Shown here in pieces: positions 1 through 63,948 of a stretch of DNA of 64,000 nucleotides. Numbering within the stretch: the first letter of the stretch is position 1; each line of letters starts with the position of its first letter. Where the stretch lies: the IMG/VR virus record IMGVR_UViG_3300002835_000155, positions 1-64,000 of that record, one strand, 5' to 3'. This DNA comes from a virus. A program made the translations under genes and the position numbers. The notes under the pieces are model-generated. The model searched no databases. It had not been told where the DNA came from and was given only the letters and a program-made list of their open reading frames with translations.

Positions 1-23
1 TTTTCTTTCTTTGTCGTGTTTAC

Positions 24-48
24 CCCGGGTCCCACAATGGGACCCGGG
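24..48. terminator. Perfect inverted repeat, possible terminator
   Basis: An 11-bp perfect stem (cccgggtccca pairing with tgggacccggg) with a 3-nt loop lies just past the stop codon of the leftward gene at 81-836. Neither strand shows a clear T-run after the stem, so intrinsic termination is plausible but unproven. It could also act as a factor-dependent or RNA-processing site. Confidence 0.4.
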
Positions 49-80
49 AAGCTACCATTCTTCACCGTCGGCTACTGTTC

Positions 81-836
81 TTACCATTTGAAGCAGTAGA
101 GGCTTTCAGGATTTTTTGCGTCCCGTTTGGCAGTCAATGCAGCGATAAACCTTCCTTGTTCGATCTTCAGTTCTGCTTCTCGTTTCTCAAGCCTGGATTC
201 TTCGGAAGCCTTCCTTTGTGCATCCAATGCGTCAACGGCGTCTTCCCGTTGCTGCTGTGTCAATGGTTCACCCCGAGCGGTTTCAATGTTCTCACCAATC
301 CACTCTGCTACTGCCTTTGCGATATATCGGGCAGGGTTCGTGATGCGGTTACCGTTCGCTTCCTGTTTTACAGATTGTCGCCAGTACTTAACGGCCATGT
401 CCTGACGCAAGTCATCCTTATCGTGGGGCTGAAGTTCTGCCACCATATCTTTGCATGGTTGCTGATTCATTAGCCACCAAATCAGATACGGGCGGTCCGA
501 CTGCCGCGGGACCGGTCTTCCAGTGTGGTCAACAGTCGGGACCGGTTCAATTCCCTGTCCAGGCGTTTCCACGACTCCCGGGATTGCCGGTTCACCGCAG
601 TCCAGGATTGCGTCCGGGAAGTCGATACACTTCGTTTGCCGCGGTCCTGAGATGTTCGGGACTGCTGACAGCATTGGGTGGGGATACCTCATCCGTTTTG
701 ATGCCCGAATCACTGCCAATGTCACTCGTTCCGATTGGTTCTCAGTCCGGTATCCTAGTCTGCAGCGGACTTCATACTGTTCGCATCTCCAAGGGATTCC
801 CTGATTATCGGATGCCATGCCAAGTGTTCCGATCAT
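81..836 (-). CDS. Hypothetical protein with charged coiled C-terminus
   Basis: Leftward ORF of about 251 aa from ATG 836; an in-frame ATG at 872 would add 12 residues but lies inside the stem of the hairpin at 864-890, so 836 is preferred. The first half is proline-rich and irregular. The last 70 residues are highly charged and helical (Glu/Lys/Arg/Gln), consistent with a coiled coil. No family was recognised. It is the only leftward gene before the long rightward block, so it is transcribed divergently from it, and it ends at the inverted repeat at 24-48. The Shine-Dalgarno sequence is weak. A regulatory or DNA-replication accessory role is possible but is guesswork. Confidence 0.6.
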   Translation of the reverse strand: MIGTLGMASDNQGIPWRCEQYEVRCRLGYRTENQSERVTLAVIRASKRMRYPHPMLSAVPNISGPRQTKCIDFPDAILDCGEPAIPGVVETPGQGIEPVPTVDHTGRPVPRQSDRPYLIWWLMNQQPCKDMVAELQPHDKDDLRQDMAVKYWRQSVKQEANGNRITNPARYIAKAVAEWIGENIETARGEPLTQQQREDAVDALDAQRKASEESRLEKREAELKIEQGRFIAALTAKRDAKNPESLYCFKW

Positions 837-863
837 GTTCTGTCTTTCTTTCTGGGGTTCGGT

Positions 864-890
864 CCGGCTCATCCGAAGTAGATGAGCCGG
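864..890 (-). promoter_or_regulatory. Leader hairpin before leftward gene 81-836
   Basis: A 10-bp perfect stem (ccggctcatc pairing with gatgagccgg) with a 7-nt loop ends 27 nt before ATG 836 on the minus strand. The spacing matches the hairpin-to-start distance seen at many other transcription-unit heads in this genome. A second nested stem-loop lies immediately upstream at 894-929 (atcgtc/gacgat inside tggtag/ctacca). Confidence 0.4.
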
Positions 891-958
891 GATTGGTAGT
901 ATCGTCTATTGCTGACGATGACTCTACCATTCTTCTCCATGCTGAACTGTTCTTTTCA

Positions 959-987
959 TTGATTCTTACACATTGTAAGGATATGAA
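959..987 (+). promoter_or_regulatory. Candidate sigma70 promoter with palindrome in the spacer
   Basis: TTGATT at 959-964, a 17-nt spacer, and TATGAA at 982-987. The spacer contains a perfect 6-3-6 inverted repeat (CTTACA cat TGTAAG, 965-979), the right position for a repressor site. It would drive the rightward early block beginning at 1091. The gap 873-1090 otherwise holds the two leader hairpins of the leftward gene and, at 1029-1072, a degenerate copy of the box-plus-hairpin leader described for 2618-2639. Confidence 0.5.
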
Positions 988-1090
988 ATCCAGCTCGGAA
1001 AGTATTACTTAGAAAGCGGAAAGGGTAAGTACAGTAGACAGCGGTGATTGATTGTGTCCGGCGATGATGCCGACAGAAAGCGGAGGGTGT

Positions 1091-1291
1091 ATGTTCCATG
1101 CCTTTGAATCAGGGTTCCGCATTACATTTAGTAATGGCTGGACATTTAGTATCGCCGTAGAGCCTGGTGGTCTCATGGCAGAGACTGCCTGCTGGTTTGG
1201 TGATGGTGAAATTCAAGAAGTGTCGCGGTGCAGTTCTCCGGAATACATCGTGGACAAAATGAAGGAAGTATCAGAAAGAAAGCGGAGGTGA
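1091..1291 (+). CDS. Small hypothetical protein
   Basis: ATG 1091 is chosen because GGAGG lies 5 nt upstream; an in-frame earlier ATG lacks such a site. The product is 66 aa, with a short beta-rich body and a basic C-terminus. It is the first gene of the rightward block, and its stop abuts the GTG of the next gene, whose GGAGG lies within its last codons, indicating coupled translation. No family recognised. Confidence 0.6.
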   Translation: MFHAFESGFRITFSNGWTFSIAVEPGGLMAETACWFGDGEIQEVSRCSSPEYIVDKMKEVSERKRR

Positions 1292-1294
1292 ATC

Positions 1295-1561
1295 GTGCGG
1301 GATGTAAAGACTCATGAGATTGAAGATCAGAAGTTGTCCCCGGTCAGCCAGTACCAGTTGGGGCGGTGTATGACCGTTGACGGCTACACAAAGAAATGCG
1401 GAGCACCAACGGACTACATGGTAAAGATAAAAGGCTACCGTGGTTGGCGACGAATCCGTGTGTACCAGATTAGTAATGCTGGTACATGCTTCGTCCGTTT
1501 ACCGGGTGACGACTTCTGCCCGATTGATGCTGAATACGTGAGAGAGAAAGCGAGAGGGTGA
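1295..1561 (+). CDS. Small basic hypothetical protein
   Basis: GTG start 3 nt after the preceding stop, with GGAGG in the overlap. The 88-aa product is lysine/arginine-rich in the middle (motif KGYRGWRRIRVYQ) and may be a small beta-barrel nucleic-acid binder, but no family is recognised. Confidence 0.6.
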   Translation: MRDVKTHEIEDQKLSPVSQYQLGRCMTVDGYTKKCGAPTDYMVKIKGYRGWRRIRVYQISNAGTCFVRLPGDDFCPIDAEYVREKARG

Positions 1562-1574
1562 TTGTTCGATAGAG

Positions 1575-1613
1575 TGCCGGGGTCACCGGCATTCGTTCAA
1601 GCAATTCCGCTTG
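1575..1613 (+). other. Two adjacent intergenic hairpins
   Basis: tgccgg/ccggca around a 5-nt loop (1575-1591), then caagc/gcttg around 6 nt (1598-1613), ending 12 nt before the ATG at 1626. The placement is like the leader-hairpin family, but the loop consensus YTGCGR is absent. Confidence 0.35.
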
Positions 1614-1625
1614 TGGAGTTAAACC

Positions 1626-1928
1626 ATGAAGGAGCTGTTTCACTATTACAAGGAAGGCTGTCCGTACAACCCGTCGTGGCACTACGCACATGGGGATGCT
1701 GAGACCTTTCTTCGGCATGACATACCAGTGTGCCCTGACGACTGGGTTCCTCCGGTTGGCAGGTCATTCGTCCTGCTTACGAACAAAGAAGGCGAGACAC
1801 GTAAAGCGGCCTGCTTTTCGTGGATCGACGGGTACAGGACTCACCGGGGGTTATTCGTCTTCATGACGGACCGGGAAAGTGTGGCTTATGCCTCGCAATG
1901 TCTCATGGCTCAAGTTTGGAGGTTGTAA
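1626..1928 (+). CDS. Hypothetical protein
   Basis: 100 aa from ATG 1626, preceded by tggag. The sequence is aromatic-rich and soluble with no recognised domain. Its TAA overlaps the ATG of the next gene by one base, so translation is coupled. Confidence 0.6.
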   Translation: MKELFHYYKEGCPYNPSWHYAHGDAETFLRHDIPVCPDDWVPPVGRSFVLLTNKEGETRKAACFSWIDGYRTHRGLFVFMTDRESVAYASQCLMAQVWRL

Positions 1929-2143
1929 TGGAAAGACCCAACTACGACGCCTGTGATGACAGGCTGAAGGCCAGGATCGACGCAGTAGCTGAGATCATGC
2001 TGGCCAACGTATGGACAGCAGTGTTCCGTGAACTGGACGATACCAATCATCGTTTTGTCATGTTTGGCGAGGACGCTGGGAGGTTGGCCCAAGTCTGCGT
2101 TGATGCCATTAAGAACGAACTACCTGAGTGCCTTGCAAAGTGA
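1928..2143 (+). CDS. Small acidic hypothetical protein
   Basis: 71 aa from ATG 1928, with TGGAGG within the end of the preceding gene. Predicted largely helical. No family recognised; part of the early rightward operon. Confidence 0.55.
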   Translation: MERPNYDACDDRLKARIDAVAEIMLANVWTAVFRELDDTNHRFVMFGEDAGRLAQVCVDAIKNELPECLAK

Positions 2144-2151
2144 GGTGAAAT

Positions 2152-2583
2152 GTGTGTGACCATTTTGACGCCCAACTCGAACGAGTGGTCGAGTGGGCCA
2201 ACTCGCTCAACACCAGCAAGGACGATGCGTTTCGCCGTATCGCCAAGCTGATGAAGGCGGACCATTTCGGTATCGAGTACATTGAGCTGGACAACTACGC
2301 AGACCTGTGTAGCTCGTTCAGTGAAGGTCCGACAGCCGCATACCTGAACACCGGGGACACGTACTCAACGACGCTGATGCTGACCGATGACTACGTCAAC
2401 GGGGTCAAGCTGGTCGTCACATCGTGGGGCGATTGGTACGAAGAACAGGAGCGTTGGGTGTTTGAGCAGTTCAACGCTGTCCGCTGCGGGTACTGTGGTC
2501 ACTTCCACGTTATGGAAGAAGGCCAGCAGTGGAACACCACTAAGTGTGAGCATTGTGGACATAACCTTGACGGGAGTAATTGA
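2152..2583 (+). CDS. Hypothetical protein with C-terminal zinc ribbon
   Basis: GTG start at 2152 with GAGGTG upstream; 143 aa. The last 35 residues hold two knuckles (CGYC and CEHC, 17 residues between), a typical zinc-ribbon spacing. The rest is acidic and unrecognised. Zinc ribbons often contact nucleic acid or RNA polymerase, so a host-takeover role is possible, but this is inference. Confidence 0.65.
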   Translation: MCDHFDAQLERVVEWANSLNTSKDDAFRRIAKLMKADHFGIEYIELDNYADLCSSFSEGPTAAYLNTGDTYSTTLMLTDDYVNGVKLVVTSWGDWYEEQERWVFEQFNAVRCGYCGHFHVMEEGQQWNTTKCEHCGHNLDGSN

Positions 2584-2617
2584 AAACACAGTCAAGCCCG
2601 GTTGAGAGTGTGTGACA

Positions 2618-2639
2618 GGGAGCCATTGCGGTGGCTCCC
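2618..2639 (+). promoter_or_regulatory. YTGCGR leader hairpin, copy A
   Basis: 8-bp perfect stem gggagcca/tggctccc closing the loop ttgcgg. It is preceded by a conserved box (cagtcaagcccggttgagag, then tgtgtgacag) and followed by atcgtgtactttc and a GGAGG. The stem ends 35 nt before ATG 2675. It is one of seven copies in the window, and compensatory stem changes among copies argue for function as RNA. Confidence 0.75.
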
Positions 2640-2674
2640 AATCGTGTACTTTCGAACCTTTGGAGGAGATTACA

Positions 2675-3196
2675 ATGGAAGAGACCAGTTACGCTGGCAT
2701 TGACTACGGTCTTGGCCAGACGAACCGAGATCATGAGACCGGAATACGCTTTGGCATCATCAGCCAGAACGACCTGTCAGGTGATGCTGTGAACGATATC
2801 TACACCAGTGGTGACGATATCGGCTTTGAGAACATGCGTCAGCAGGCCAAAGACGAGTTGGCCGCTGCAATCGAGTCTGCCATTGAGAACTACGGTAAAC
2901 TCAATGCAGAGGAAGCTGCGGAGGACCTTCTGGACAATATCGAATGGCACGACTGTGATGAGTCTGGTCCATACGAGTATTCAGGAGAAGGCTACCACTT
3001 GCGGACAACCAGTGACAACGAGTTGTGGGTGTTGAAGAGTCCCTTCTACACTCACGCTCAATTCTGCAGTCCGTGTGCTCCCGGAGCCGGTCATCTTGGC
3101 AACCCATGTCCAACCGGGCCTAAGACGTATTGTCTGGGTCCAGACTGGTTTGAGAACGGTGAGGCACCATACCCGATCTACAAGGTTGAAGAGTAA
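2675..3196 (+). CDS. Acidic hypothetical protein
   Basis: ATG 2675 is chosen for GGAGGA 7 nt upstream; the frame stays open further upstream but crosses hairpin copy A. The product is 173 aa, acidic, with a central helical segment and a cysteine pair in the C-terminal third (FCSPCAPG). No family recognised. Confidence 0.65.
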   Translation: MEETSYAGIDYGLGQTNRDHETGIRFGIISQNDLSGDAVNDIYTSGDDIGFENMRQQAKDELAAAIESAIENYGKLNAEEAAEDLLDNIEWHDCDESGPYEYSGEGYHLRTTSDNELWVLKSPFYTHAQFCSPCAPGAGHLGNPCPTGPKTYCLGPDWFENGEAPYPIYKVEE

Positions 3197-3227
3197 GTAC
3201 AGTTGACCCCGGTGAGAGTGTGTGACA

Positions 3228-3249
3228 GGGGGCCATTGCGGTGGCTCCC
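3228..3249 (+). promoter_or_regulatory. YTGCGR leader hairpin, copy B
   Basis: Stem gggggcca/tggctccc with one G-U pair, loop ttgcgg. The upstream box tacagttgaccccggtgaga and downstream atcgtgtactttc are nearly identical to copies A and E. The stem ends 30 nt before GTG 3280. Confidence 0.75.
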
Positions 3250-3279
3250 AATCGTGTACTTTCAGAAAGGAGGTTCACA

Positions 3280-3480
3280 GTGGTCAAAGAATGTTTCTAC
3301 ACCCAGTCATACCGTGGCTGGTGGATTCACGTTCATCGAGAACGTGAGCCGGGGACTCTGTTCTGCCGTGAGGTGGTCAAGGTTCAAGATCCTGAGACGT
3401 ACCTGGTGAAAGCGGTTCCGACCGTACGAGCCGCCAAGATGTTTATTACGAGGAGGACAAAATGCCGCGTAACAAAGTGA
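3280..3480 (+). CDS. Small hypothetical protein
   Basis: GTG 3280 lies 6 nt after AAAGGAGG; 66 aa, basic. Its last 19 nt overlap the next gene, whose start is preceded by GAGGAGG inside this coding sequence. No family recognised. Confidence 0.55.
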   Translation: MVKECFYTQSYRGWWIHVHREREPGTLFCREVVKVQDPETYLVKAVPTVRAAKMFITRRTKCRVTK

Positions 3481-4124
3481 CAGAAATCTTCAAGTACGAA
3501 GAACTGTCAGACAGTGCAAAAGAGAAAGCCCGTGAGTGGTATCGCGGACTGGACGGTGGGCTTGACTACGAGTGGTGGGATAGTGTCTACGATGACTTCG
3601 AGGAAGTCTGCAAGATCCTCGGGGTCGAGCTGAGTACCAGTCCTGTGAAACTTATGGGTGGCGGTACTCGACAGAAGCCCGACATTCAATTCAGTGGTTT
3701 CTGGTCACAGGGCGATGGAGCCAGCTTCGAGGGTTGCTTCCGTGGCAAACTCGACATGGTTGAGAAGATCAAAGAGTATGCTCCACAGGACACAGACCTG
3801 CACAACATTGCTGAGTGTCTGTATGTAGACTTTGTTGAGCCGTACAACGCGACGTGCCGAGTGGACATCACAACCAGTGGTCGATACTCACACTCTCACA
3901 CCATGCGGTTCGAGTTCAACGAGTTTGAGAATGCCGAGGGTGAGTGGGAACCAATGGAGGACCGTGATCGTGAAACGGTCGTGGAGAACAACCTGCGATG
4001 GTTGGCCGACTGGTTGTACAACAGCCTTGAGAAAGAACATGACTGGTTGACCAGCGATGAAGTTGTTGCCGAGAACATCATCGCCAACGGGTACGAGTTT
4101 GACGAGAACGGTAATCCTGAGTGA
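3462..4124 (+). CDS. Conserved phage hypothetical protein (DELSDxAKExAREWYR type)
   Basis: 220 aa from ATG 3462. The N-terminus (YEELSDSAKEKAREWYR, residues 10-26) and the central FSGFWSQGDGASFEG motif (around 78-92) are, from memory, hallmarks of a widespread phage protein family sometimes annotated as the N-terminal part of an antitoxin of a stability system. That name is not functionally supported here, and no toxin partner is evident next to it. The rest is acidic and aromatic-rich with a helical C-terminus. Function unknown. Confidence 0.75.
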   Translation: MPRNKVTEIFKYEELSDSAKEKAREWYRGLDGGLDYEWWDSVYDDFEEVCKILGVELSTSPVKLMGGGTRQKPDIQFSGFWSQGDGASFEGCFRGKLDMVEKIKEYAPQDTDLHNIAECLYVDFVEPYNATCRVDITTSGRYSHSHTMRFEFNEFENAEGEWEPMEDRDRETVVENNLRWLADWLYNSLEKEHDWLTSDEVVAENIIANGYEFDENGNPE

Positions 4125-4134
4125 CCGTAACGCC

Positions 4135-4152
4135 GGGCCATTGCGGTGGCCC
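4135..4152 (+). promoter_or_regulatory. YTGCGR leader hairpin, copy C
   Basis: 6-bp stem gggcca/tggccc with loop ttgcgg, 40 nt before GTG 4193. Its upstream box (tgaccgtaacgc) differs from copies A, B, D and E but is shared with copy G, defining a second subtype. Confidence 0.65.
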
Positions 4153-4192
4153 AGTATTATGTTCATTCAAACCTGTGAAAGTGAGGTGAAAC

Positions 4193-4504
4193 GTGAATAC
4201 GTTGGAACGCAAGTTCCCTATCGTTGACAACAAGATCCACAGCAACCCCCGGATCGACTCGGGGTACGTTTGCTCGTTCCGAAGTCAAAGCGGGTACGGT
4301 TACGACCTACACGTTGTTGACCAGGGTATGAGTGAGCCAAGTTGGGTACTTGTAGAAAGCGATACTGACTGGAGCAGCGGACCGATGTCCGTTCTGCTGC
4401 GGTGTGCCTTAGCAGACGGCAGTCCGTACGACGTGTACCGGTACTGCCTCATGTGCCTGAGCACTTTCGGCAGTTTTTCCTGGAAGCCATTGGAGAACCC
4501 ATGA
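4193..4504 (+). CDS. Hypothetical protein
   Basis: 103 aa from GTG 4193 (GTGAGG upstream). Beta-rich and soluble; no family recognised. Overlaps the next gene by ATGA. Confidence 0.55.
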   Translation: MNTLERKFPIVDNKIHSNPRIDSGYVCSFRSQSGYGYDLHVVDQGMSEPSWVLVESDTDWSSGPMSVLLRCALADGSPYDVYRYCLMCLSTFGSFSWKPLENP

Positions 4505-5088
4505 TCGACCCAGAACTACAGCAACGCTTTCGAGAGTTGCTGACGCGGTGTGACGAATCACACTTGGAGTACGAAGAGGAACACGGTGACGCTGGTGATG
4601 CCTACTCGCACTGCGTCGTAGAAGACTCCCACAACGTCAGGGAGGCCCTGGTATATTACATTCTGACCAACTTCCCGGGCTGGACGCCGGAAGAGGTCAA
4701 AGCCGTACTGGGGGAGTTTGACCAGTGGTCGTTCGACATGGTACCCGGTCACCGCTTCAGCGGTCGCAGGAACACTGACCCTGACGAGTCAAAAGCCGGT
4801 TGCCAAGTGTGGTCTACCAGCGTCGAAGAAGTCGAAAACCAGGTCGAGGTCAAGACCCTGGCTGAAAGTCTCGACTGCGAGGTTGAGAACATCCGTGAGC
4901 TGGTACTCGCTGAGAAAGAAGGCCGCATGAGTGACTTCTGTATCGGCCACATCTACCGGCCTGAGACATTCACCACGTTCGAGACGTACCAGGCCACTGA
5001 TGCCTGTTGGTTTGCAGTCGTGCCGTACGACTGGTTCACTGAGAAGATCGAGGAGGTACGAGAACATGCGGAGGAAGTGAAAGATTAA
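4501..5088 (+). CDS. Acidic hypothetical protein
   Basis: ATG 4501 sits in an ATGA overlap with the preceding stop; 195 aa, strongly acidic (Glu/Asp-rich) and mostly helical at both ends. No recognised domain. The acidic nature, shared with many neighbours, is common in early phage proteins that bind host factors, but that is only a general association. Confidence 0.6.
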   Translation: MIDPELQQRFRELLTRCDESHLEYEEEHGDAGDAYSHCVVEDSHNVREALVYYILTNFPGWTPEEVKAVLGEFDQWSFDMVPGHRFSGRRNTDPDESKAGCQVWSTSVEEVENQVEVKTLAESLDCEVENIRELVLAEKEGRMSDFCIGHIYRPETFTTFETYQATDACWFAVVPYDWFTEKIEEVREHAEEVKD

Positions 5089-5121
5089 GTACAGTTGACC
5101 CCGGTGTCAGAGAGTGTGACC

Positions 5122-5143
5122 GACGAGTCTTGCGAGGCTCGTC
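5122..5143 (+). promoter_or_regulatory. YTGCGR leader hairpin, copy D (covarying stem)
   Basis: Stem gacgagtc/ggctcgtc with one U-G pair and loop ttgcga. Six of eight stem positions differ from copy A, yet pairing is kept and the loop is conserved, the strongest evidence for an RNA structure. Preceded by tacagttgaccccggtg and followed by ctcgtgttctctc; it ends 30 nt before ATG 5174. Confidence 0.75.
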
Positions 5144-5173
5144 ACTCGTGTTCTCTCACAGAAAGGAGAAACC

Positions 5174-5395
5174 ATGTTTGGTAGAGAAGATGAGACAGAG
5201 CTGCGTCTGGTTCAACGTGGTGGGTACCTGAGGCCGGATAGGAACTACGACTACTTCCTGTTGAAGCGGTTGATGTTCACTGCTGGCCTGCCCCAGACAA
5301 GAGGTGTTTTGCTGTTGGACAGTCAGTACGACAAGATCCTGGCAGTTGCTGAATGTACAATCTGTGTTACTGAGGAGGAAAACGATGAAGGTTAG
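5174..5395 (+). CDS. Small hypothetical protein
   Basis: 73 aa from ATG 5174 with AAAGGAG upstream. Unrecognised. The last bases overlap the next gene, whose GAGGAGG lies inside this one. Confidence 0.55.
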   Translation: MFGREDETELRLVQRGGYLRPDRNYDYFLLKRLMFTAGLPQTRGVLLLDSQYDKILAVAECTICVTEEENDEG

Positions 5396-5603
5396 ACCGA
5401 ACTTGGCGTATCGGCACGCTAACTACCCGAGCAACACCGCTCTCGACCCAAAGGCGGTTATCGACGCAACTCCTGCGACGAACCAGCCAAACTGGGAGTG
5501 CGAAGGCAAAATCTTCGTGGAGTGCCCAAACGGTGCTCCTGAGTTGCTCCTTGTGGCGGGTGAGTACACTATTGTGGAACCGTTTACTGAGGAAGAGATA
5601 TGA
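5385..5603 (+). CDS. Small hypothetical protein
   Basis: ATG 5385, 8 nt after GAGGAGG; 72 aa. A small predicted beta-rich protein (EGKIFVECPNG...LLLVAGEYTIV). Overlaps the next gene by ATGA. Confidence 0.55.
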   Translation: MKVRPNLAYRHANYPSNTALDPKAVIDATPATNQPNWECEGKIFVECPNGAPELLLVAGEYTIVEPFTEEEI

Positions 5604-5818
5604 CCAACGAGAATTGCCTGAAGGGTATGCGTTGTCCACGTTGTGACAGCTACGGTCCGTTCGGCATTGCGGTTGACGTTGTTATGCTGGTCACCGATGA
5701 AGGTACTGATACCCCAATCGGGGACATGACATGGGACGACTTCAGTTACTGTGAATGCCGTGAGTGTCTGAAGCGTGGTGCTGTCCTGGATTTCTTTGAG
5801 GAGAAAACGGATGGCTAG
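5600..5818 (+). CDS. Small zinc-ribbon-like protein
   Basis: 72 aa from ATG 5600. CPRC near residue 12 and CECREC near residue 51 form two cysteine knuckles consistent with a zinc ribbon. Probably a nucleic-acid or protein binder; no exact family recognised. Confidence 0.6.
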   Translation: MTNENCLKGMRCPRCDSYGPFGIAVDVVMLVTDEGTDTPIGDMTWDDFSYCECRECLKRGAVLDFFEEKTDG

Positions 5819-6062
5819 ACCAGCAAGGTCGATAACGCACCTGAGTGACACGCTGCACTTGGCAGACTGCCACGACGGGTTCTGGTTGTACGATGACACC
5901 CGAGGGATGAACCTGTCCATGCGGGCAAAGACAGCGGAGGAAGCCTTCGTTGATGCTTTGACGTACTACCAGAGACGACTCAAAGAAGTCGAAGGGTATT
6001 ACTCAAGTTTGAAGTCGAGAGTTGACCTGTTCGTTGAGTCGTTTGTTGAGGAGGACGGTTGA
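5811..6062 (+). CDS. Small hypothetical protein
   Basis: ATG 5811 overlaps the preceding stop by 8 nt and has TGAGGAG upstream; 83 aa with a helical C-terminal half. The middle resembles short HicB-like folds only vaguely (beta-strands then an AEEAF helix), which is not enough for a call. Confidence 0.5.
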   Translation: MARPARSITHLSDTLHLADCHDGFWLYDDTRGMNLSMRAKTAEEAFVDALTYYQRRLKEVEGYYSSLKSRVDLFVESFVEEDG

Positions 6063-6063
6063 G

Positions 6064-6471
6064 ATGCTTGAAATCGACGTGAGTTTCCTGTTGGAGATTG
6101 ATGCCAGTAACTTCGCAGCCTCACAAGCTGAGTTGGGTCCAAACGCTGGCAGGATCACATGGGCTAACGCCTGTGAGGTTTGTCACTTGATTAACCTGAC
6201 GCCTGAAGAGATACTTGAGGCCAAGGACTACATCAAGACCTGGGGGGCCTGGGAGGGCGAAGAGATCGACAGTTGGTCTGAGGACGAGACGAAAGCCTTG
6301 ATAGTACAGTCGGCAGCGGTTGACTATCGTGAGGCACTGAGTTGTTGCCGGGTCGACGAAGACTTCGACGACATCGAATGGGACGAGTACCTGGTTCAAG
6401 CTGAGTCTGGTCGCATTTCTGGGAATCTGTTCATGCACGACGGAAAATTGTATATGTCGTTCTGCTCATGA
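6064..6471 (+). CDS. Acidic hypothetical protein
   Basis: 135 aa from ATG 6064, preceded by GAGGACGG. Very acidic with short helices; no recognised domain. Last gene before the tRNA-like element. Confidence 0.55.
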   Translation: MLEIDVSFLLEIDASNFAASQAELGPNAGRITWANACEVCHLINLTPEEILEAKDYIKTWGAWEGEEIDSWSEDETKALIVQSAAVDYREALSCCRVDEDFDDIEWDEYLVQAESGRISGNLFMHDGKLYMSFCS

Positions 6472-6508
6472 GTATCTTATCGACACTGTGACGAGGGTTC
6501 ACAGACTT

Positions 6509-6581
6509 GAGTGGGTCGTCTAACTGGCAAGACCACCGGGCGGCAATCCCGGTGATGCAGGTTCGAATCCTGCCCCACTCA
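6509..6581 (+). tRNA. tRNA-like gene, apparent anticodon GCA, no U33
   Basis: A 73-nt cloverleaf can be folded: acceptor gagtggg/cccactc, D arm gtct/agac around an 8-nt loop with GG, and T arm gcagg/cctgc around ttcgaat. The anticodon stem ccggg/cccgg closes a 7-nt loop cggcaat, giving anticodon GCA (Cys) if standard numbering holds. Position 33 is then G instead of the near-universal U, and one extra base separates the D and anticodon arms. CCA is not encoded. It may be a degenerate tRNA, a tRNA mimic, or a tRNA whose loop is mis-assigned (a shifted reading gives GGC). Confidence 0.7.
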
Positions 6582-6601
6582 CTGGATGTTTTACAACACG
6601 C

Positions 6602-6648
6602 ACCGCTTGGCGACTTATGGGGGAGACTAGCCCCCGTCGCCAAGCGGT
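6602..6648 (+). promoter_or_regulatory. Long bipartite hairpin after the tRNA
   Basis: A 13-bp perfect stem (accgcttggcgac/gtcgccaagcggt) is topped by a bulge and a second 5-bp stem (ggggg/ccccc) with a 7-nt loop, then ctttcttt. It ends 25 nt before ATG 6674. It may terminate or process the tRNA transcript, or serve as a leader hairpin for the next gene. Confidence 0.6.
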
Positions 6649-6673
6649 CTTTCTTTGGAGGGTTGAGAAAGCG

Positions 6674-7102
6674 ATGAGAGACATCATCAAAGAATTGCAC
6701 GACAAGGTTCAGGACGACTTGACTGGGGTTGACGTTGATACCCTCTACGACGAGATGCTCAATGAGTGTTACAGCATGTCATCGGTCGGGGGGCCTTTCA
6801 GCCACATGATGCCGAGCAAGGTTCTCAAAGAATGCGATCCGGTCGCATACCGCTGTGGGTTTTCCGACTGGCTCGACGGTGCGGGGTTCTACGAGGTCGA
6901 CGGTAAGTACTACCACGGGCCTGACCTTGAGTGGATCAAGGACGATCTGATCGACGGGTTGGGAGACGAGATCAGCAACCTTGAAGAACAGGTTGATGAT
7001 ATGCCACAGTCAGACATCGACGCTGGTGTGGACCTTGTCTGCAGAGACCTCATCGACATAGCCAACGACGATATAGCCAAGCTCAGAAAGTATTCTTTCT
7101 AG
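6674..7102 (+). CDS. Hypothetical protein
   Basis: 142 aa from ATG 6674 with GGAGG somewhat far upstream (about 13 nt). Acidic; the central segment CGFSDWLDGAGFYEVDGKYY resembles motifs I have seen in uncharacterised phage proteins, without a known role. Flanked by the bipartite hairpin and hairpin copy E. Confidence 0.6.
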   Translation: MRDIIKELHDKVQDDLTGVDVDTLYDEMLNECYSMSSVGGPFSHMMPSKVLKECDPVAYRCGFSDWLDGAGFYEVDGKYYHGPDLEWIKDDLIDGLGDEISNLEEQVDDMPQSDIDAGVDLVCRDLIDIANDDIAKLRKYSF

Positions 7103-7132
7103 TACAGTCGAGACCGGTGAGAGGTTGTGACA

Positions 7133-7154
7133 GGGGGCCACTGCGGTGGCTCCC
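7133..7154 (+). promoter_or_regulatory. YTGCGR leader hairpin, copy E
   Basis: Stem gggggcca/tggctccc, loop ctgcgg, box tacagtcgagaccggtgaga upstream and atcgtgttctctc downstream. It ends 35 nt before ATG 7190. Confidence 0.75.
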
Positions 7155-7189
7155 AATCGTGTTCTCTCAAACCATTCTGGAGGTGATAC

Positions 7190-7600
7190 ATGTCCGACAA
7201 GAAATGTGAAGAGTTGGTTGATGACCGTCTGGCTGGTCGACTCGAAGACCTGCTGCCAGACTGGGACGATGAAGAACTGGTCAAGACGTTGGCTGATGAC
7301 TTCGACACGGACCGTGAAGGCGTTGAGTCCGGCGATGACTTGAAACATGCGGTAATGAATGACCACCGTGACCGGGCCTGTGAAGGTGTACTGTCTGTCG
7401 AGGTCCGCAAGTCGTACCGGGTCCTGCTGTCATGGGGTGGCCCGTCAGACGGGTTTGACTTCGTGTTCAACAGCGAAGGTGAGTTGATCGAGTGTGAGTA
7501 CTTCTACCAAGACTGGTTCGACGGGGCCAAACGCCCAGTCCCGATGGATCAAGCTGAGGAACTGGTTCAGCTCTACTATGTTGGTCCTGAGTTCAAGTAA
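7190..7600 (+). CDS. Acidic hypothetical protein
   Basis: 136 aa from ATG 7190 with GGAGGTG upstream. The N-terminal half is Asp/Glu-rich and helical; the C-terminal half is aromatic and beta-rich (FDFVFNSEGELIECEYFYQD). No family recognised. Confidence 0.6.
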   Translation: MSDKKCEELVDDRLAGRLEDLLPDWDDEELVKTLADDFDTDREGVESGDDLKHAVMNDHRDRACEGVLSVEVRKSYRVLLSWGGPSDGFDFVFNSEGELIECEYFYQDWFDGAKRPVPMDQAEELVQLYYVGPEFK

Positions 7601-7610
7601 ACCCGTGATG

Positions 7611-7632
7611 GAGGGTCACTGCGGTGGCTCTC
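7611..7632 (+). promoter_or_regulatory. YTGCGR leader hairpin, copy F
   Basis: Stem gagggtca/tggctctc, kept by two G-U pairs, loop ctgcgg. It ends 36 nt before ATG 7669. The upstream box is shortened (acccgtgatg). Confidence 0.65.
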
Positions 7633-7668
7633 TTTCGTGTGTTTCCTGTTTCGAAAGGAGGAAGTGCT

Positions 7669-8040
7669 ATGCTGAAAGTAAGATTCCACCTGGCCAAAGG
7701 TAAGAACTACCAGAAGTGGCAGATCCGAAAAGGCAGGGCTGTCTGTTACTACGATCCAACGAAGGTGAATCTCCTGATGCGGGATTGCCGGTTGGTGAAT
7801 CGGAGAGGGACAGCAGAAAAGATATTCGCTGGTGAGGACAAGACGGTCTGTGCCTGGGTCGAATGCGAGACTGTACATGTCGGTGTTTGTGTTGCCGACC
7901 AGTACGACGCCGGGCAGCAACTGATATACAACCCGAGATGGCAACCGTTCTGGACATCATCGGAGACTGGAGCAAACCTGGATGGGGAGCGGTTCCCTAT
8001 GATCCTGAGTCAAGGCAGGTCCTTGTTTGAGGTTCTTTAA
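7669..8040 (+). CDS. Basic hypothetical protein
   Basis: ATG 7669 with AAAGGAGGAA upstream; 123 aa. The N-terminus is basic and the rest mixed alpha/beta. No family recognised. Its TAA directly abuts the GTG of the next small gene. Confidence 0.6.
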   Translation: MLKVRFHLAKGKNYQKWQIRKGRAVCYYDPTKVNLLMRDCRLVNRRGTAEKIFAGEDKTVCAWVECETVHVGVCVADQYDAGQQLIYNPRWQPFWTSSETGANLDGERFPMILSQGRSLFEVL

Positions 8041-8193
8041 GTGGCTGCACCCAAGACAAAGACCAGCCATTGGTTCAAACACCCAACCGGCATAGGTTGG
8101 AAGTGCCAGGGCTGCGGCCGGTGTAATTCAACGAAGGTGAAAACCTGTTCAAGATGTAAGTTTCTGAAAGGAGGACCAATTGAAAACCGTTGA
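8041..8193 (+). CDS. Tiny zinc-ribbon protein (50 aa)
   Basis: GTG 8041 immediately follows the preceding TAA. The 50-residue product has CQGCGRC and CSRC knuckles (CxxC, about 12 residues, CxxC), a minimal zinc-ribbon fold, in a basic background. The next gene starts inside its 3' end. GAGG lies about 8 nt upstream of the start. Two zinc-ribbon genes in tandem suggest related roles in nucleic-acid or protein binding. Confidence 0.55.
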   Translation: MAAPKTKTSHWFKHPTGIGWKCQGCGRCNSTKVKTCSRCKFLKGGPIENR

Positions 8194-8428
8194 CTGTAAG
8201 TTCTGCGGAGGGGCCAGGCCAGTTGACCCCGCAACGCATCGCTGTAAAGGCTGCGGCATGGAGGAAGGTTCCTGTCGACGTAGCCCCGAGCCGTCCGGAA
8301 GGCGACCATGCCCAATGTGTGACTGCCGAGTGGTTCGGTGGATCAACGACAACACCCAGCTTGAATGCGTGGTGTGTCATACTGAGTTTGAAGCTGTTGA
8401 GAAAGGCATTGACTATGTTTCGAATTGA
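8180..8428 (+). CDS. Zinc-ribbon protein with two CxxC pairs in each half
   Basis: TTG start at 8180, 5 nt after AAAGGAGG, which justifies the rare codon. The 82-aa product has four knuckles: CKFC, CKGC, CPMC and CVVC. This fits two tandem zinc ribbons. It overlaps both neighbours. Confidence 0.6.
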   Translation: MKTVDCKFCGGARPVDPATHRCKGCGMEEGSCRRSPEPSGRRPCPMCDCRVVRWINDNTQLECVVCHTEFEAVEKGIDYVSN

Positions 8429-8753
8429 TCTGGGGATTGCTGGGAGTGGAATTCTGACCGGTCTGCGTGCTCTTGATGAGCGTCGTCGCCTGGGCCTGCC
8501 AGACGACAGCCGCTTGTGCATCTACGACAGGCGTACTTCGTGTTGGTTCGAAGTGACAGAAGCCTTCGCTCGGCAGCACTTCCGGTATGATGATAACGAT
8601 CAGACAGCGACGGTGCCGCTGTCAGCACTCACCAAGGACGACGTGGCAATCGTTAACCACTGTCTGGTCATCCGGGACGACATAACAGACGAGCGTGCAA
8701 TGGAGTTGTTCGCTGCTCATTACGTCAAGGAGGACGTTTCATGCTCTGGTTAA
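8415..8753 (+). CDS. Hypothetical protein
   Basis: 112 aa from ATG 8415, GAAAGG upstream, overlapping the preceding gene by 14 nt. Mixed alpha/beta; not recognised. Its 3' end contains the AAGGAGG and start codon of the next small gene. Confidence 0.55.
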   Translation: MFRIDLGIAGSGILTGLRALDERRRLGLPDDSRLCIYDRRTSCWFEVTEAFARQHFRYDDNDQTATVPLSALTKDDVAIVNHCLVIRDDITDERAMELFAAHYVKEDVSCSG

Positions 8754-8914
8754 TCGACCACCTGGGTCCCATACCGTTTGGGGCCGTCATGTTCTTACTG
8801 ATGCTGGGGCTGCTGGTTCTGACAGATTTCATCCTGTCATGCACAGAGCAACACATCGACCACAATCACCGTATCAACGAGGTATTCAAAGATGGCAAGC
8901 TGGACGGCGAATAA
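8741..8914 (+). CDS. Small single-pass membrane protein (57 aa)
   Basis: ATG 8741, 7 nt after AAGGAGG, overlapping the preceding stop by 13 nt. Residues 11-32 form a strongly hydrophobic segment (PFGAVMFLLMLGLLVLTDFI) followed by a hydrophilic histidine-containing tail. Topology suggests a one-span inner-membrane protein. Function unknown; an early membrane protein could act in exclusion or host modification. Confidence 0.6.
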   Translation: MLWLIDHLGPIPFGAVMFLLMLGLLVLTDFILSCTEQHIDHNHRINEVFKDGKLDGE

Positions 8915-9209
8915 TAACCGGCAGTGGACCGCGTTCTGGTCCAGCATCGACAAGGACGGTAACCGGTACCGTCACCAGGTCCGCAAGACACGACCAGAAG
9001 ACGGTGCCCGCTGGTTGGTCCGTACTCAGGTCTGGCCAAACGGGGAATCTATCTATCACACGGTCAGCGTTGAGCTGCCGAGGTCACACGGTGAGTACCT
9101 GTGGACCATGACCAAAATCTGGACCAACGTAGACGAAGAAGGGCGAGAGATGTATCCGCCCGAGTATCAGTCTGGCTTCAAGAATCTGGGAGAGCGTAAT
9201 GTCGAGTGA
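8892..9209 (+). CDS. Tryptophan-rich hypothetical protein
   Basis: 105 aa from ATG 8892, overlapping the membrane-protein gene by 23 nt. Basic and Trp-rich (about eight Trp), likely a compact beta fold. No family recognised. Confidence 0.55.
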   Translation: MASWTANNNRQWTAFWSSIDKDGNRYRHQVRKTRPEDGARWLVRTQVWPNGESIYHTVSVELPRSHGEYLWTMTKIWTNVDEEGREMYPPEYQSGFKNLGERNVE

Positions 9210-9432
9210 AGAAAAGGACCTGTCCACGCTCAACATCTCGTGGCAGACACGCATGGCCTCAGTGATGAGGCAATTTCACAAGTTGACCAAGAAACCGGTC
9301 TTCGACAAGACCAACGACGTGATGGTCAACGTCATCGGTATGACCTGTGTGATCGGTACGCCGGGCCTGCAGGTCGTCCCAACGGATGGAGGTAGCATCT
9401 ACACTTTGAAATGTGAGGAGTTGGATGTATGA
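9199..9432 (+). CDS. Small hypothetical protein
   Basis: 77 aa from ATG 9199, overlapping the preceding gene by 11 nt. N-terminal amphipathic helix, then a beta-rich half. Unrecognised. Confidence 0.55.
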   Translation: MSSEEKDLSTLNISWQTRMASVMRQFHKLTKKPVFDKTNDVMVNVIGMTCVIGTPGLQVVPTDGGSIYTLKCEELDV

Positions 9433-9773
9433 GACGCAAGACTACAAACGAAGAGTTCCGGGTACTCTCTGACTGGTTGCGGGACCAGCCACAACCCATC
9501 ACCATGACGATAGCTAAACTGCAAACAGCCATGTCTGGTGTGTTGGGGCGACCCGTTCCAAAGAGTTCTTTCGCAAACCTTCTGAAAGATCCGAAGGTGA
9601 CGGTGATGGACCCGAGAGGTGCAAACTTCTCTAACGGGTCAGACCGTATTAAACGGGTTGTGATTGTAATCGAGACCATCTTGGCAGACCTGCACAAACA
9701 CCTGGGGTACATACCCGCTGAGAGTGTTGCTGTTGAGCTGCGATCCCTGGCAAACGGAAAGCGAGGTGAGTAG
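9429..9773 (+). CDS. Hypothetical protein, possible winged-helix
   Basis: 114 aa from ATG 9429 in an ATGA-type overlap. Residues 20-50 (TMTIAKLQTAMSGVLGRP, then SSFANLLKDP) could form a helix-turn-helix followed by basic strands, so a small DNA-binding protein is possible. This is fold guessing from sequence pattern only. Confidence 0.5.
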   Translation: MRRKTTNEEFRVLSDWLRDQPQPITMTIAKLQTAMSGVLGRPVPKSSFANLLKDPKVTVMDPRGANFSNGSDRIKRVVIVIETILADLHKHLGYIPAESVAVELRSLANGKRGE

Positions 9774-9774
9774 C

Positions 9775-10047
9775 ATGAGCGTAACACAACTGACGCACAA
9801 TCATGGTCAGCTTTTGCTGAACGACGTGCTGATATTCCGGTATCGAGGGGGAGACGTCGACACGATCCCCTGGCCGCTCAAGTGTGAGTTCCGGGATGAC
9901 GGTGAGATCCTGCATCAACTCGCCTCATGCTTGTACGACGAGCGAGAATGCGGCGGGTGGGACGGCGACCATGTCCTGCTACCCGATGGTACCAAGTTCT
10001 ACCCGGAGGAGCATCTGGTTGACGCTCCTCGTCGGTACGAGTTCTGA
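9775..10047 (+). CDS. Small hypothetical protein
   Basis: 90 aa from ATG 9775, with GCGAGGTG upstream. Acidic, mixed fold, no family recognised. Confidence 0.55.
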   Translation: MSVTQLTHNHGQLLLNDVLIFRYRGGDVDTIPWPLKCEFRDDGEILHQLASCLYDERECGGWDGDHVLLPDGTKFYPEEHLVDAPRRYEF

Positions 10048-10058
10048 ATGACCGTAAC

Positions 10059-10082
10059 GCTGGTTCTCTGCGGAGGACCAGC
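10059..10082 (+). promoter_or_regulatory. YTGCGR leader hairpin, copy G
   Basis: 9-bp stem gctggttct/aggaccagc with one U-G pair and loop ctgcgg. The stem sequence is unrelated to copies A-F, yet pairing and loop are preserved. Its box tgaccgtaacgc matches copy C. It ends 31 nt before ATG 10114. Confidence 0.75.
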
Positions 10083-10113
10083 ATTGTGTTTATTCACCAG
10101 ACTGGAGGTAACA

Positions 10114-10281
10114 ATGTTCACAGAAGGTCAACAGGTTCGAGTTATCGACGACGAGTGCCCACTTCACGGCAAGATTGTGACGATCATTCGTCGTCACCCA
10201 AAATGCACCGCCGAGTGGGAGGTGCGTACCGAGAGTGGCAGGGAGTGGTTGGTCCACTCGTGCCGGTTGCGACCGGTCTAA
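10114..10281 (+). CDS. Small basic hypothetical protein (SH3-like?)
   Basis: 55 aa from ATG 10114 with TGGAGG upstream. The pattern (EGQQVRVIDDECPLHGKIVTI) resembles small SH3/KOW-like barrels. It is the last gene of the rightward block, and its TAA overlaps the stop codon of the convergent helicase gene. Confidence 0.55.
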   Translation: MFTEGQQVRVIDDECPLHGKIVTIIRRHPKCTAEWEVRTESGREWLVHSCRLRPV

Positions 10282-11729
10282 ATCTTGCCCTTCTGTTTCG
10301 CGTAATCCCGGAGGACGTCCAGTAATCTTGACTGGACGTCCTCTTTGTCGTCTATGCGAGCCCAGATCACCTCGTGAATGGTGTCCTTGGCGTACAGCCT
10401 GTGAACTCTCACAGGTCCACCAACACCCTGCCGGTAGATACGGGCGTTGAACTGGATGTACGTGTCCAGGTTGTCCGTTGGGCCATACCACACGATGTCA
10501 CGGCACGATCCCTTCTGAGCATTGATACCGTACGACATAGCCTGTGGTTGAACCGCCATGTAAGGCGGCTCCAGTGTATCGTTGTTCCACCTGTCGATCA
10601 GGTCAGTGACATGTGCTTCCTTGGTCCCACCCCGGATGATGTGAAGACCTTTGACCGCCTTCTCCATACGCTGGACATCGTGGTCAAACTGGTAAGCTGC
10701 GAAGACTGGCTTGCCTCCAAGCTCGTCAACCAAGTCAGCATACGCATCGGTCATCGCACTGTGTAGGTGGTGAACCGTCCTGTCGTGCCCGTAGATGCCG
10801 CCTGCTGCGATCTGACGGCAAGCATTGTACTTTGCCCCGGCGTTCACGGCACCCCGTTGTGAGCCGTCCTGCAGCTCGATAAACATCTGTCTTTCCATGT
10901 CGTCGTACGCGGCCCGTGCGTCCGGTGGTAGCTCTACCGGTACGTCGTGATACGTGATGGGTGGCATGGACAGGTGGTCTGCTGCGTCGAGCCGGAGGAC
11001 CAGATGCTTCACAGCCTGGTGAATCGCGTCATGCTTCTCGGTACGTACCTGAAAGTTGTTCTGCTCACGAGACCCAACCTGACAGCAGTACTCAGATCGG
11101 AAAGCGGTGACGTTCTTACCGAGGGCTTTACCTTGGTCCAAAATCCAGCACTGTGGGTACAGGTCGGCCAGGTTTCTCGGTGCTGGTGTACCTGTCAGGA
11201 TCACACGGTACGGGATACGCTTGGCGAGGTCACGTACAGCCTGTGATCTCTTCGCGGACCAGTTCTTAAACGAGGTTGACTCGTCGACGATGATAGCCTG
11301 CCAGGGCAATCGGTCCCGGCCCTTCAGTTGGTTAGCGAGCCAGCCGATACCATCTCGGTTGATGATGTGGATGTTAACCTGGGTCGCCAGTCGTTTCCTG
11401 CGTACCGATGCACTGCCGTGTACCACCGAGTAGGACAGTGACCTGAAGTTGGTCCAGCCTGTGATCTCCTGCGGCCACACCTGCCAACAGACACGTAGCG
11501 GGGCCACGATGAGAAAGCGATTGGCCAGACCGAACTCTTTCATCTGCATCATCCACTCCAACGTGGATGAAGTCTTACCAAGCCCGGGGTCGAGGAACAA
11601 CGCGGCTCCACCTTCACCGTCTGGGTTGAGGCTTGTCCTTTCGTGAAGGAACTGCACTGCGGTTTCCTGGTACTTGTGTGGCACCCATAACTTTGGTGCT
11701 TCCTTGTCCGCTCCGAACTTCATCGACAT
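10278..11729 (-). CDS. SNF2-like superfamily II DNA helicase/translocase
   Basis: 483 aa from ATG 11729 (GAGAGGGT upstream). Motif I LDPGLGKT (about 46-54), motif II VDES (variant of DEAH), motif III LTGTPAPRN, and a motif VI-like QFNARIYRQGV near residue 440 define an SF2 helicase of the SNF2-like phage group. Such proteins accompany family A polymerases in phage replication modules and are thought to remodel forks or recombination intermediates. The start overlaps the VRR-NUC gene by 116 nt. Last gene of the replication operon; its 3' end carries the terminator of the opposing block. Confidence 0.92.
   Translation of the reverse strand: MSMKFGADKEAPKLWVPHKYQETAVQFLHERTSLNPDGEGGAALFLDPGLGKTSSTLEWMMQMKEFGLANRFLIVAPLRVCWQVWPQEITGWTNFRSLSYSVVHGSASVRRKRLATQVNIHIINRDGIGWLANQLKGRDRLPWQAIIVDESTSFKNWSAKRSQAVRDLAKRIPYRVILTGTPAPRNLADLYPQCWILDQGKALGKNVTAFRSEYCCQVGSREQNNFQVRTEKHDAIHQAVKHLVLRLDAADHLSMPPITYHDVPVELPPDARAAYDDMERQMFIELQDGSQRGAVNAGAKYNACRQIAAGGIYGHDRTVHHLHSAMTDAYADLVDELGGKPVFAAYQFDHDVQRMEKAVKGLHIIRGGTKEAHVTDLIDRWNNDTLEPPYMAVQPQAMSYGINAQKGSCRDIVWYGPTDNLDTYIQFNARIYRQGVGGPVRVHRLYAKDTIHEVIWARIDDKEDVQSRLLDVLRDYAKQKGKI
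10311..10347 (+). terminator. Terminator inside the 3' end of the opposing helicase gene
   Basis: 13-bp perfect stem gaggacgtccagt/actggacgtcctc with a 7-nt loop, followed on the plus strand by tttg. It would stop rightward early transcription 30 nt past the last rightward gene. The sequence also encodes residues near the C-terminus of the leftward helicase, so one segment serves both roles. Confidence 0.6.
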
Positions 11730-12003
11730 ACCCTCTCACAAAATCCTTTGCCTCGGTCAGATCACTTGTCACCAGTACCGGCACACCTAACGCCCTCAGT
11801 GCTGCGATACGCTGGTCTTGTACTTTGCTGGTCTTACCAGTCGGGGACTTGAACTCGATGCAGACCAGCCTGCCGCCGGGCAGGATGACTGTCCTGTCTG
11901 GAAAGCCAGACACACCTTGGGCTGCCAGCTTCAGGACAAACAGTCCTTGGTCTCGTCCCCACTTGGCAAAGGCAGCTTCAACACGTTTCTCAGGACCGGC
12001 CAT
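11614..12003 (-). CDS. VRR-NUC domain nuclease
   Basis: 129 aa. Residues 33-85 match the VRR-NUC fold: GFPDRTVILPGG then CIEFKSP (catalytic D...ExK) and KVQDQRIAALRALGVPVLV. VRR-NUC is a PD-(D/E)XK nuclease family that in phages is often encoded beside SNF2-like helicases and probably acts as a structure-specific (Holliday-junction type) nuclease. One-base overlap with the polymerase stop. The C-terminal 30 residues are basic and overlap the helicase start. Confidence 0.9.
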   Translation of the reverse strand: MAGPEKRVEAAFAKWGRDQGLFVLKLAAQGVSGFPDRTVILPGGRLVCIEFKSPTGKTSKVQDQRIAALRALGVPVLVTSDLTEAKDFVRGYVDEVRSGQGSTKVMGATQVPGNRSAVPSRKDKPQPRR

Positions 12004-61390: not shown

Positions 61391-61405
61391 GAAACAGATT
61401 GTGTC

Positions 61406-61433
61406 GGGGCCATCTTTTCGATAGGATGGCCCC
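61406..61433 (+). promoter_or_regulatory. Leader hairpin before phosphoesterase gene
   Basis: 9-bp stem ggggccatc/gatggcccc with a 10-nt loop, 31 nt before ATG 61465. Acts as leader hairpin or weak terminator for the preceding gene. Confidence 0.55.
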
Positions 61434-61464
61434 GGTTTATCAGCCAATCCTTGCGGAGCCACGT

Positions 61465-63784: not shown

Positions 63785-63942
63785 TGGTTCATTTGATGTA
63801 CTGGAGTGAGTTCCGGCTGGCGGGACTGCGATGGTCCACATATGTTGACGTCTGCCGAGGACAGACGCCTAACTGGTGGAGGTACGGTGGACCCCGGTCC
63901 AACCTCATGAGATTCCCGGACCAGTTGGTTTTCCAGTCATGA
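63784..63942 (+). CDS. Small Trp/Arg-rich protein (52 aa)
   Basis: ATG 63784 in an ATGA overlap with the preceding stop; TGA ends at 63942. Basic and aromatic (WWRYGGPRSNLMRF). Followed by a strong terminator, so it is the last gene of this unit. No family recognised. Confidence 0.5.
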   Translation: MVHLMYWSEFRLAGLRWSTYVDVCRGQTPNWWRYGGPRSNLMRFPDQLVFQS

Positions 63943-63948
63943 GAATTT

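What the first reader, a model, noticed from the sequence alone, without database searches (positions are those of the whole stretch)
2618..10082. Seven-copy covarying leader hairpin with a conserved YTGCGR loop
Copies at 2618, 3228, 4135, 5122, 7133, 7611 and 10059 each end 30-40 nt before a start codon and share the loop TTGCGG, CTGCGG or TTGCGA. Stem sequences vary (gggagcca, gacgagtc, gctggttct) with compensatory or wobble changes, and a GGAGG site follows. Two subtypes of upstream box exist (tacagttgaccccggtgaga versus tgaccgtaacgc). This looks like a structured RNA module heading sub-operons: perhaps a processing site, a 5' stabiliser or a binding site for a phage or host protein. No sigma70 promoter accompanies the copies.
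Basis: seen in the sequence. Interest (0 to 1): 0.82.

Follow-up and report, generated by a model that had tools for sequence, protein, structure and literature searches.

The report
Phage intercistronic RNA hairpins resembling RNase III sites
This phage and its few known relatives place a conserved RNA hairpin in most gaps between the small genes of one transcribed block, much as phage T7 does at the sites where a host enzyme cuts its message into separate mRNAs.

Summary
All seven hairpins exist, all on the + strand. Each is about 52 nt with 22 base pairs: a 9-bp upper stem, a conserved 2x2 internal loop and a 12-13-bp lower stem. The "YTGCGR hexaloop" is better read as a UGCG tetraloop closed by a covarying Y-R pair. 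A covariance model recovers exactly these seven in the 67.9-kb record and 5-9 in each of four related viral contigs. Across 31 copies, 17 of 22 pairs show changes on both sides (covariation 0.72, against 0.25 shuffled). Wobbles are G.U on the coding strand (109 cells) and almost never A.C (4), so it acts as sense RNA. An eighth, diverged copy lies at 1557-1609. Copies start within about 22 nt of the upstream stop codon and end 12-28 nt before the next start. No homologue was found outside this group, and nothing similar is in Rfam.

Best explanation: RNase III-type processing hairpins that cut a long transcript into separately translated mRNAs, as in T7. Architecture, placement and predicted cut-to-start distance (median 32 nt; T7 34) match T7 sites, but cleavage is untested. 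The conserved loop and 3' strand leave a protein-binding "RNA regulon" as main rival.

The parts
2603..2654 (+). Hairpin 1 (type 1, GTGAC/TCG core, loop UGCG); before ORF 2675-3196
   Evidence: R1 72.7 bits; fold z -4.9
3213..3264 (+). Hairpin 2 (type 1); before ORF 3280-3480
   Evidence: R1 74.4 bits; fold z -4.2
4118..4169 (+). Hairpin 3 (type 2, GTAAC/TTA core); contains the upstream gene's TGA; before ORF 4193-4504
   Evidence: R1 66.0 bits; fold z -4.7; stop position
5107..5158 (+). Hairpin 4 (type 1, UUGCGA loop form); before ORF 5174-5395
   Evidence: R1 61.3 bits; fold z only -1.65
7118..7169 (+). Hairpin 5 (type 1); before ORF 7190-7600; present before this gene in all the related genomes
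   Evidence: R1 75.4 bits; synteny
7596..7647 (+). Hairpin 6 (type 3, GTGATG/TTTCG core); contains the upstream TAA; before ORF 7669-8040
   Evidence: R1 59.8 bits; fold z -3.8
10045..10096 (+). Hairpin 7 (type 2); starts at the upstream TGA; before ORF 10114-10281
   Evidence: R1 61.8 bits; fold z -5.1
1557..1609 (+). Eighth, diverged hairpin (type 4, ATTGT/GCAAT lower stem, loop not UGCG); before ORF 1626-1928
   Evidence: Missed by R1; folds as 7 bp + 1x1 + 2 bp + 2x2 + 9 bp; aligns in A9. R2 score of 48.3 bits is by construction
3199..3212 (+). Upstream box ACAGTTGACCCCGG of hairpin 2
5091..5104 (+). Upstream box ACAGTTGACCCCGG of hairpin 4
7104..7117 (+). Upstream box ACAGTCGAGACCGG of hairpin 5
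2588..2601 (+). Upstream box ACAGTCAAGCCCGG of hairpin 1
1031..1044 (+). Box-like ACAGTAGACAGCGG after a TAA with only a short weak hairpin behind it; possible degenerate copy

Best explanation
The hairpins are a family of RNase III-type processing signals in a long + strand transcript. Shown here: each folds in the sense RNA into a 22-bp hairpin interrupted by a 2x2 internal loop, lies between the stop codon of one gene and the Shine-Dalgarno site of the next, and is maintained by compensatory change. Inferred: host RNase III (the phage encodes none that was detected) binds the two-turn helix and cuts the 3' strand near the internal loop, around the invariant U43 (CCC-AAU^CGUGU). This would leave the upper stem-loop as a protective 3' end on the upstream mRNA, and give the downstream mRNA a new 5' end about 24-40 nt before its start codon with a free Shine-Dalgarno site. 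The block is thereby divided into separately decaying and separately translated units without a promoter per unit.
For: Architecture: 9-bp upper stem + 4-nt loop, internal loop, 12-13-bp lower stem in 31 copies. T7 sites R0.3, R0.5, R1, R1.1, R4.7 and R18.5 fold the same way with 9-10-bp upper stems; R1 even has the loop C(UGCG)G. R1.1 is described as a hairpin with a 4/5-nt internal loop cut by RNase III (PMC6121014, PMC8708148). Placement: 5' base -22 to +10 nt from the upstream stop, 3' end 12-28 nt before the start, strong Shine-Dalgarno. Predicted cut to start: median 32 nt, range 24-40; T7 median 34. Sense-RNA polarity 109 G.U against 4 A.C. Loop varies in diverged copies (CGCG, CGAG, GGTCA) while the stem architecture stays, as expected for a loop-indifferent dsRNA nuclease. 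No U-tract, no sigma70-like site. No RNase III or dsRBD family in the phage, so a host enzyme would do. Other unrelated phages also have their own ~22-bp intercistronic hairpins with internal loops.
Against: No cleavage, 5'-end or RNA-seq data. The internal loop is small and symmetric (2x2), unlike the asymmetric 4/5 loop of T7 R1.1. Models R1 and R2 do not hit T7: analogy, not homology. RNase III does not explain why UGCG is kept in 27 of 31 copies, why the pair C25-G34 is kept as C-G in 29 of 31, or why the 3' strand UYGUGU is conserved beyond pairing. T7 cut coordinates other than R1.1 are from memory. The minus-strand block also has some long intergenic hairpins (7 of 12 against 3 of 9 gaps, Fisher p = 0.39), so a long hairpin by itself is not distinctive. 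The host is unknown.
Confidence: 0.5

Rival explanations
1. The hairpin is the binding site of a phage or host RNA-binding protein that controls translation or stability of at least eight cistrons together (an RNA regulon); the conserved loop and the tandem-wobble/mismatch core are the contact points.
For: Strong sequence conservation where pairing does not demand it: UGCG, A16-U43 invariant in 31/31, R15-Y44, U-G/G-U/U-G wobble tract and UYGUGU 3' strand. Copies are confined to one gene block and one strand.
Against: Loop differs in the diverged copies. The Shine-Dalgarno site is outside the hairpin. No RNA-binding family stood out among the Pfam and PHROGs families listed, though most genes are unassigned and the lists are cut at 25 families.
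Confidence: 0.25
2. The hairpin is not cut; it is a passive insulator that blocks translational coupling between cistrons and protects mRNA ends from exonucleases.
For: Sits exactly between stop codon and Shine-Dalgarno; most genes without a hairpin in between overlap or abut.
Against: Passive roles need only stability, not a conserved core, a conserved mismatch and conserved wobbles.
Confidence: 0.15
3. Transcription antitermination element (put- or nut-like) that lets host RNA polymerase cross terminators in the block.
For: A terminator-like hairpin with CTTTCTTT lies inside the block at 6603-6649; RNA-level action and no sigma70-like sites.
Against: At least eight copies spread through the block, each tied to a Shine-Dalgarno site, rather than one or two near a promoter; put elements have two stem-loops (own knowledge).
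Confidence: 0.05
4. DNA-level element: recombination boundary, operator or hairpin promoter.
For: Gene gain and loss occurs at hairpin junctions: downstream genes differ between relatives after the same hairpin. The box is uniform within a genome and differs between genomes.
Against: 109 G.U against 4 A.C cells and reverse-strand model scores of at most 27 bits against 48-74 on the sense strand show selection on sense RNA; no T7-type RNA polymerase detected (positive control).
Confidence: 0.03

Closest known systems
Bacteriophage T7 RNase III processing sites (R0.3, R0.5, R1, R1.1, R1.3, R4.7, R18.5)
   Same: Sense-strand intercistronic hairpins about 33 nt before the next start codon; 9-10-bp upper stem with a small loop, internal loop, lower stem; several copies along one transcribed region; R1 has the same C(UGCG)G loop
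   Different: No detectable sequence homology; 2x2 instead of asymmetric internal loop; strong conservation of loop and 3' strand; no T7-type RNA polymerase detected in this phage; cleavage not shown
Cluster K mycobacteriophage SAS/ESAS (PMC3203893)
   Same: Repeated element with inverted repeats just upstream of translation starts of a subset of non-structural genes, with family-specific consensus
   Different: The authors report that changes in the ESAS arms do not support RNA pairing and favour DNA-binding proteins; here the arms covary strongly and the sense-RNA bias is clear
HK022 put / lambda nut antitermination RNAs
   Same: Phage-encoded cis-acting RNA hairpins in early transcripts
   Different: One or two copies near promoters; different structure; not tied to each Shine-Dalgarno site (own knowledge, not tested)

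Membership tests
T7-type RNase III processing site | Double-stranded RNA hairpin of about two helical turns with an internal loop, on the transcribed strand | tested here: met
   22 pairs with 2x2 loop, 31 copies; sense-strand G.U bias
T7-type RNase III processing site | Intercistronic position, cut about 22-60 nt before a start codon | tested here: met
   Predicted cut 24-40 nt before start, T7 median 34; the cut position itself is inferred
T7-type RNase III processing site | Asymmetric internal loop (4/5 nt in R1.1) | tested here: not met
   Internal loop is 2x2 in most copies; R1.1 description PMC6121014
T7-type RNase III processing site | Sequence homology to T7 sites | tested here: not met
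   R1 and R2 find nothing in T7, E up to 10
T7-type RNase III processing site | Cleavage by RNase III | not testable with these tools
   Needs in vitro cleavage or end mapping
Cluster K ESAS | Inverted repeats whose changes do not support RNA pairing | tested here: not met
   Covariation score 0.722 against 0.252 shuffled; ESAS statement in PMC3203893
Intrinsic transcription terminator | GC stem followed directly by a U-tract | tested here: not met
   Longest T run in the 5 aligned bases after the helix is 0-4, mostly 0-2; scan finds no excess of terminator-like sites (10 found, 10.4 expected) but lists 4135 and 10059 weakly
Any Rfam 15 family | Match at or near gathering score | tested here: not met
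   Only the tRNA in the window; no hairpin match at E up to 5. T7 itself has no Rfam match, so absence from Rfam says little about this class
Phage RNA polymerase promoter plus hairpin cassette | T7-type single-subunit RNA polymerase gene | tested here: not met
   PF00940 absent in own record, found in T7 as positive control
HK022 put / lambda nut antitermination RNA | Lets RNA polymerase read through terminators | not tested
   No transcription data; judged unlikely from copy number and position only

The most novel reading that the evidence does not exclude
The hairpins form an RNA regulon: a sequence-specific phage or host protein reads the UGCG loop and the UYGUGU/wobble core and switches or paces at least eight cistrons together, possibly coupled to RNase III cleavage.
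Probability: 0.22. Interest if true: 0.75.

Novelty: new variant of a known kind. Interest (0 to 1): 0.55.

Why it matters
Processing of phage messages by RNase III is known mainly from T7, T3 and lambda. A covarying, repeated hairpin family in an unrelated uncultured phage group, with different hairpin families in other phages that carry small-gene blocks, suggests that hairpin-divided transcripts may be a common phage strategy that annotation pipelines and Rfam miss. It gives a ready set of natural variants (31 copies) for testing what RNase III, or a specific binding protein, needs to recognise.

Tried and rejected
Host or prophage copies: the strict motif in 84,980 bacterial and archaeal genomes gave three single hits, none of which appears in the model search of those loci, so chance. 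The strict pattern in 2.9 million viral contigs found only the four relatives. Named phages sharing a neighbouring gene (Acinetobacter D22, Pseudomonas PMBT3, Erythrobacter XM05, Caulobacter CcrBL9) lack it. DNA polymerase and helicase searches gave only distant named phages, so the host is not identified. Rfam at loose threshold gave nothing credible. Hairpin length alone as a discriminator between gene blocks is not significant. A phage-specific promoter reading of the upstream box: no phage RNA polymerase found and box copies are tied to hairpins. An alignment of the L046/L047 hairpins was too gapped for a covariation test.
Full report
What was checked. The window is positions 1-64000 of a 67,861-base viral record whose last 967 bases repeat its first 967, so the genome is probably complete at about 66.9 kb. 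It is a tailed phage with Prim-Pol/DUF3987 and DNA polymerase genes, a serine-recombinase (Resolvase-domain) integrase, portal and head proteins and many unassigned genes. Rightward genes run from about 60,165 through the ends to 10,281; almost everything else is leftward. No near DNA relative is among 50,697 phage records. A DNA polymerase search found four related viral contigs with 95, 79, 79 and 70% identity; L006 and L008 gave the same hairpin sequences.

The observation. All seven hairpins are present. Scanning every YTGCGR, only these seven sites in the window have 6 or more flanking pairs; the relatives have 3-9 such sites each in the equivalent block, all but one (a 7-pair match in L006/L008 on the other strand) on the coding strand of the small genes. 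A 60-nt ungapped alignment of 24 copies shows that the element is longer than described: columns 4-16 pair with 43-55, 17-18/41-42 form a conserved 2x2 internal loop, and 19-27 pair with 32-40 around UGCG. Sixteen of 21 predicted pairs carry double changes. On 31 copies, 92.4% of cells pair against 67.6% in shuffles; the covariation score is 0.722 against 0.252, and 0.10-0.17 when the partners are slid. Copies within a genome are related, so these are not formal probabilities, but the slid controls keep relatedness and fall far below.

Strand. Among paired columns there are 109 G.U cells and 4 A.C cells. If the complementary strand were the functional one, the reverse would hold. Model R2 scores the sense strand 48-74 bits and the reverse complement at most 27. 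The functional molecule is therefore the sense transcript.

Conservation pattern. A16-U43 is invariant in 31 of 31 copies; position 15-44 is G-C or A-U in all; 12-14/45-47 is a tract of U.G, G.U, U.G wobbles; 17-42 is never a standard pair in the 24-copy set, most often C opposite A. The 3' strand UYGUGU (columns 43-48) carries 1.1-2.0 bits per column, more than most of its partners. The loop is UGCG in all but four of the 31 copies (CGCG, CGAG, and GGTCA in two orthologous copies).

Census. Model R1 finds exactly the seven copies in the whole record. Gap-by-gap folding adds a diverged eighth copy at 1557-1609, which has an orthologue in L020 and similar forms in L007 and L022. These were added to the alignment, so model R2's hits on them are by construction. 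Other hairpins, less clearly of this family, sit in the gaps before 61,465 and 64,007.

Position. In 28 copies the 5' base lies between 22 nt downstream and 10 nt upstream of the upstream stop codon, and in the 27 copies with a called start the 3' end is 12-28 nt (median 20) before it, with a strong Shine-Dalgarno between. Copies with an upstream box have the stop 14-22 nt before the stem; copies without it mostly have the stop inside the 5' arm. Most genes without a hairpin in between overlap or abut. Across relatives the same hairpin can be followed by different genes, and a hairpin can be absent where two genes abut (L005, between the homologues of 7190-7600 and 7669-8040). The hairpin is thus a junction element, not part of one gene.

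Comparison with T7. T7 was folded around its RNase III sites. Cut positions other than R1.1 are from memory of Dunn and Studier 1983; R1.1 at nt 5887 is confirmed in PMC8708148. R0.3, R0.5, R1, R1.1, R4.7 and R18.5 form a 9-10-bp upper stem with a small loop, an internal loop and a lower stem, with the cut on the 3' side of the internal loop. R1 has the loop C(UGCG)G. Cut-to-start distance in T7 is 22-61 nt for nine of ten sites (median of all ten 34); placing the cut equivalently here gives 24-40 nt (median 32). There is no sequence homology. PMC8708148 also reports that a 12-bp stem with a tetraloop suffices for E. coli RNase III and that its targets share no strong consensus; PMC6121014 describes the R1.1 internal loop.

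What does not fit. RNase III alone does not require the loop, the C25-G34 pair or the UYGUGU strand to be conserved. The U.G closing pair in 9 of 31 copies argues that plain UNCG stability is not the whole reason for UGCG. A specific binding protein is therefore the main rival. The box 5' of type 1 hairpins (ACAG..CCGG here, TAGCAGGTCCGG in relatives) is uniform within a genome and tied to the hairpins but unexplained.

Distribution. Outside this group no copy was found in viral contigs (strict pattern), bacterial and archaeal genomes or the named phages tested. Contigs that share only the 2675-3196 gene family have different intercistronic hairpins of similar build, which suggests convergence; this was only partly followed.

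Verdict. A real, new, covarying sense-RNA family; most likely an RNase III-type processing signal (about 0.5), otherwise a protein-binding regulon (about 0.25) or a passive insulator (about 0.15).

Noticed in passing
L046 2723-9516, L047 5008-9495, L034 5411-10322, L039 6559-9164: Other viral contigs that share only the 2675-3196 gene family carry their own repeated long intercistronic hairpins with internal loops (about 22 pairs in L046/L047), starting at the upstream stop codon; not matched by R1 or R2.
   Followed up: partly
window 6603-6649: Strong hairpin followed by CTTTCTTT just after the only tRNA (Cys, 6509-6582): a likely terminator or tRNA-processing hairpin inside the hairpin block; also present in the related contig G001.
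   Followed up: no
window 1-967 and record 66895-67861: Identical 967-base repeat at both ends of the record: probably a complete, circularly assembled or terminally redundant genome of about 66.9 kb.
   Followed up: partly
window 1-12000: No sigma70-like site found where 6.3 are expected in shuffles (sd 2.6): possible depletion of host-promoter-like sequences.
   Followed up: no
window 61404-61458 and about 63930-63985: Further intergenic hairpins at gene junctions upstream in the same + block (GGGGCCATC..GATGGCCCC; GCCCGGC..GCCGGGC), not clearly of the same family.
   Followed up: partly
window 45220-48018 (-) and 61399-63315 (+): Two proteins match thymidylate synthase, PhoH-like and other PHROGs only over short stretches, one with a weak LAGLIDADG_3 match: they look like intein- or homing-endonuclease-bearing proteins.
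   Followed up: no
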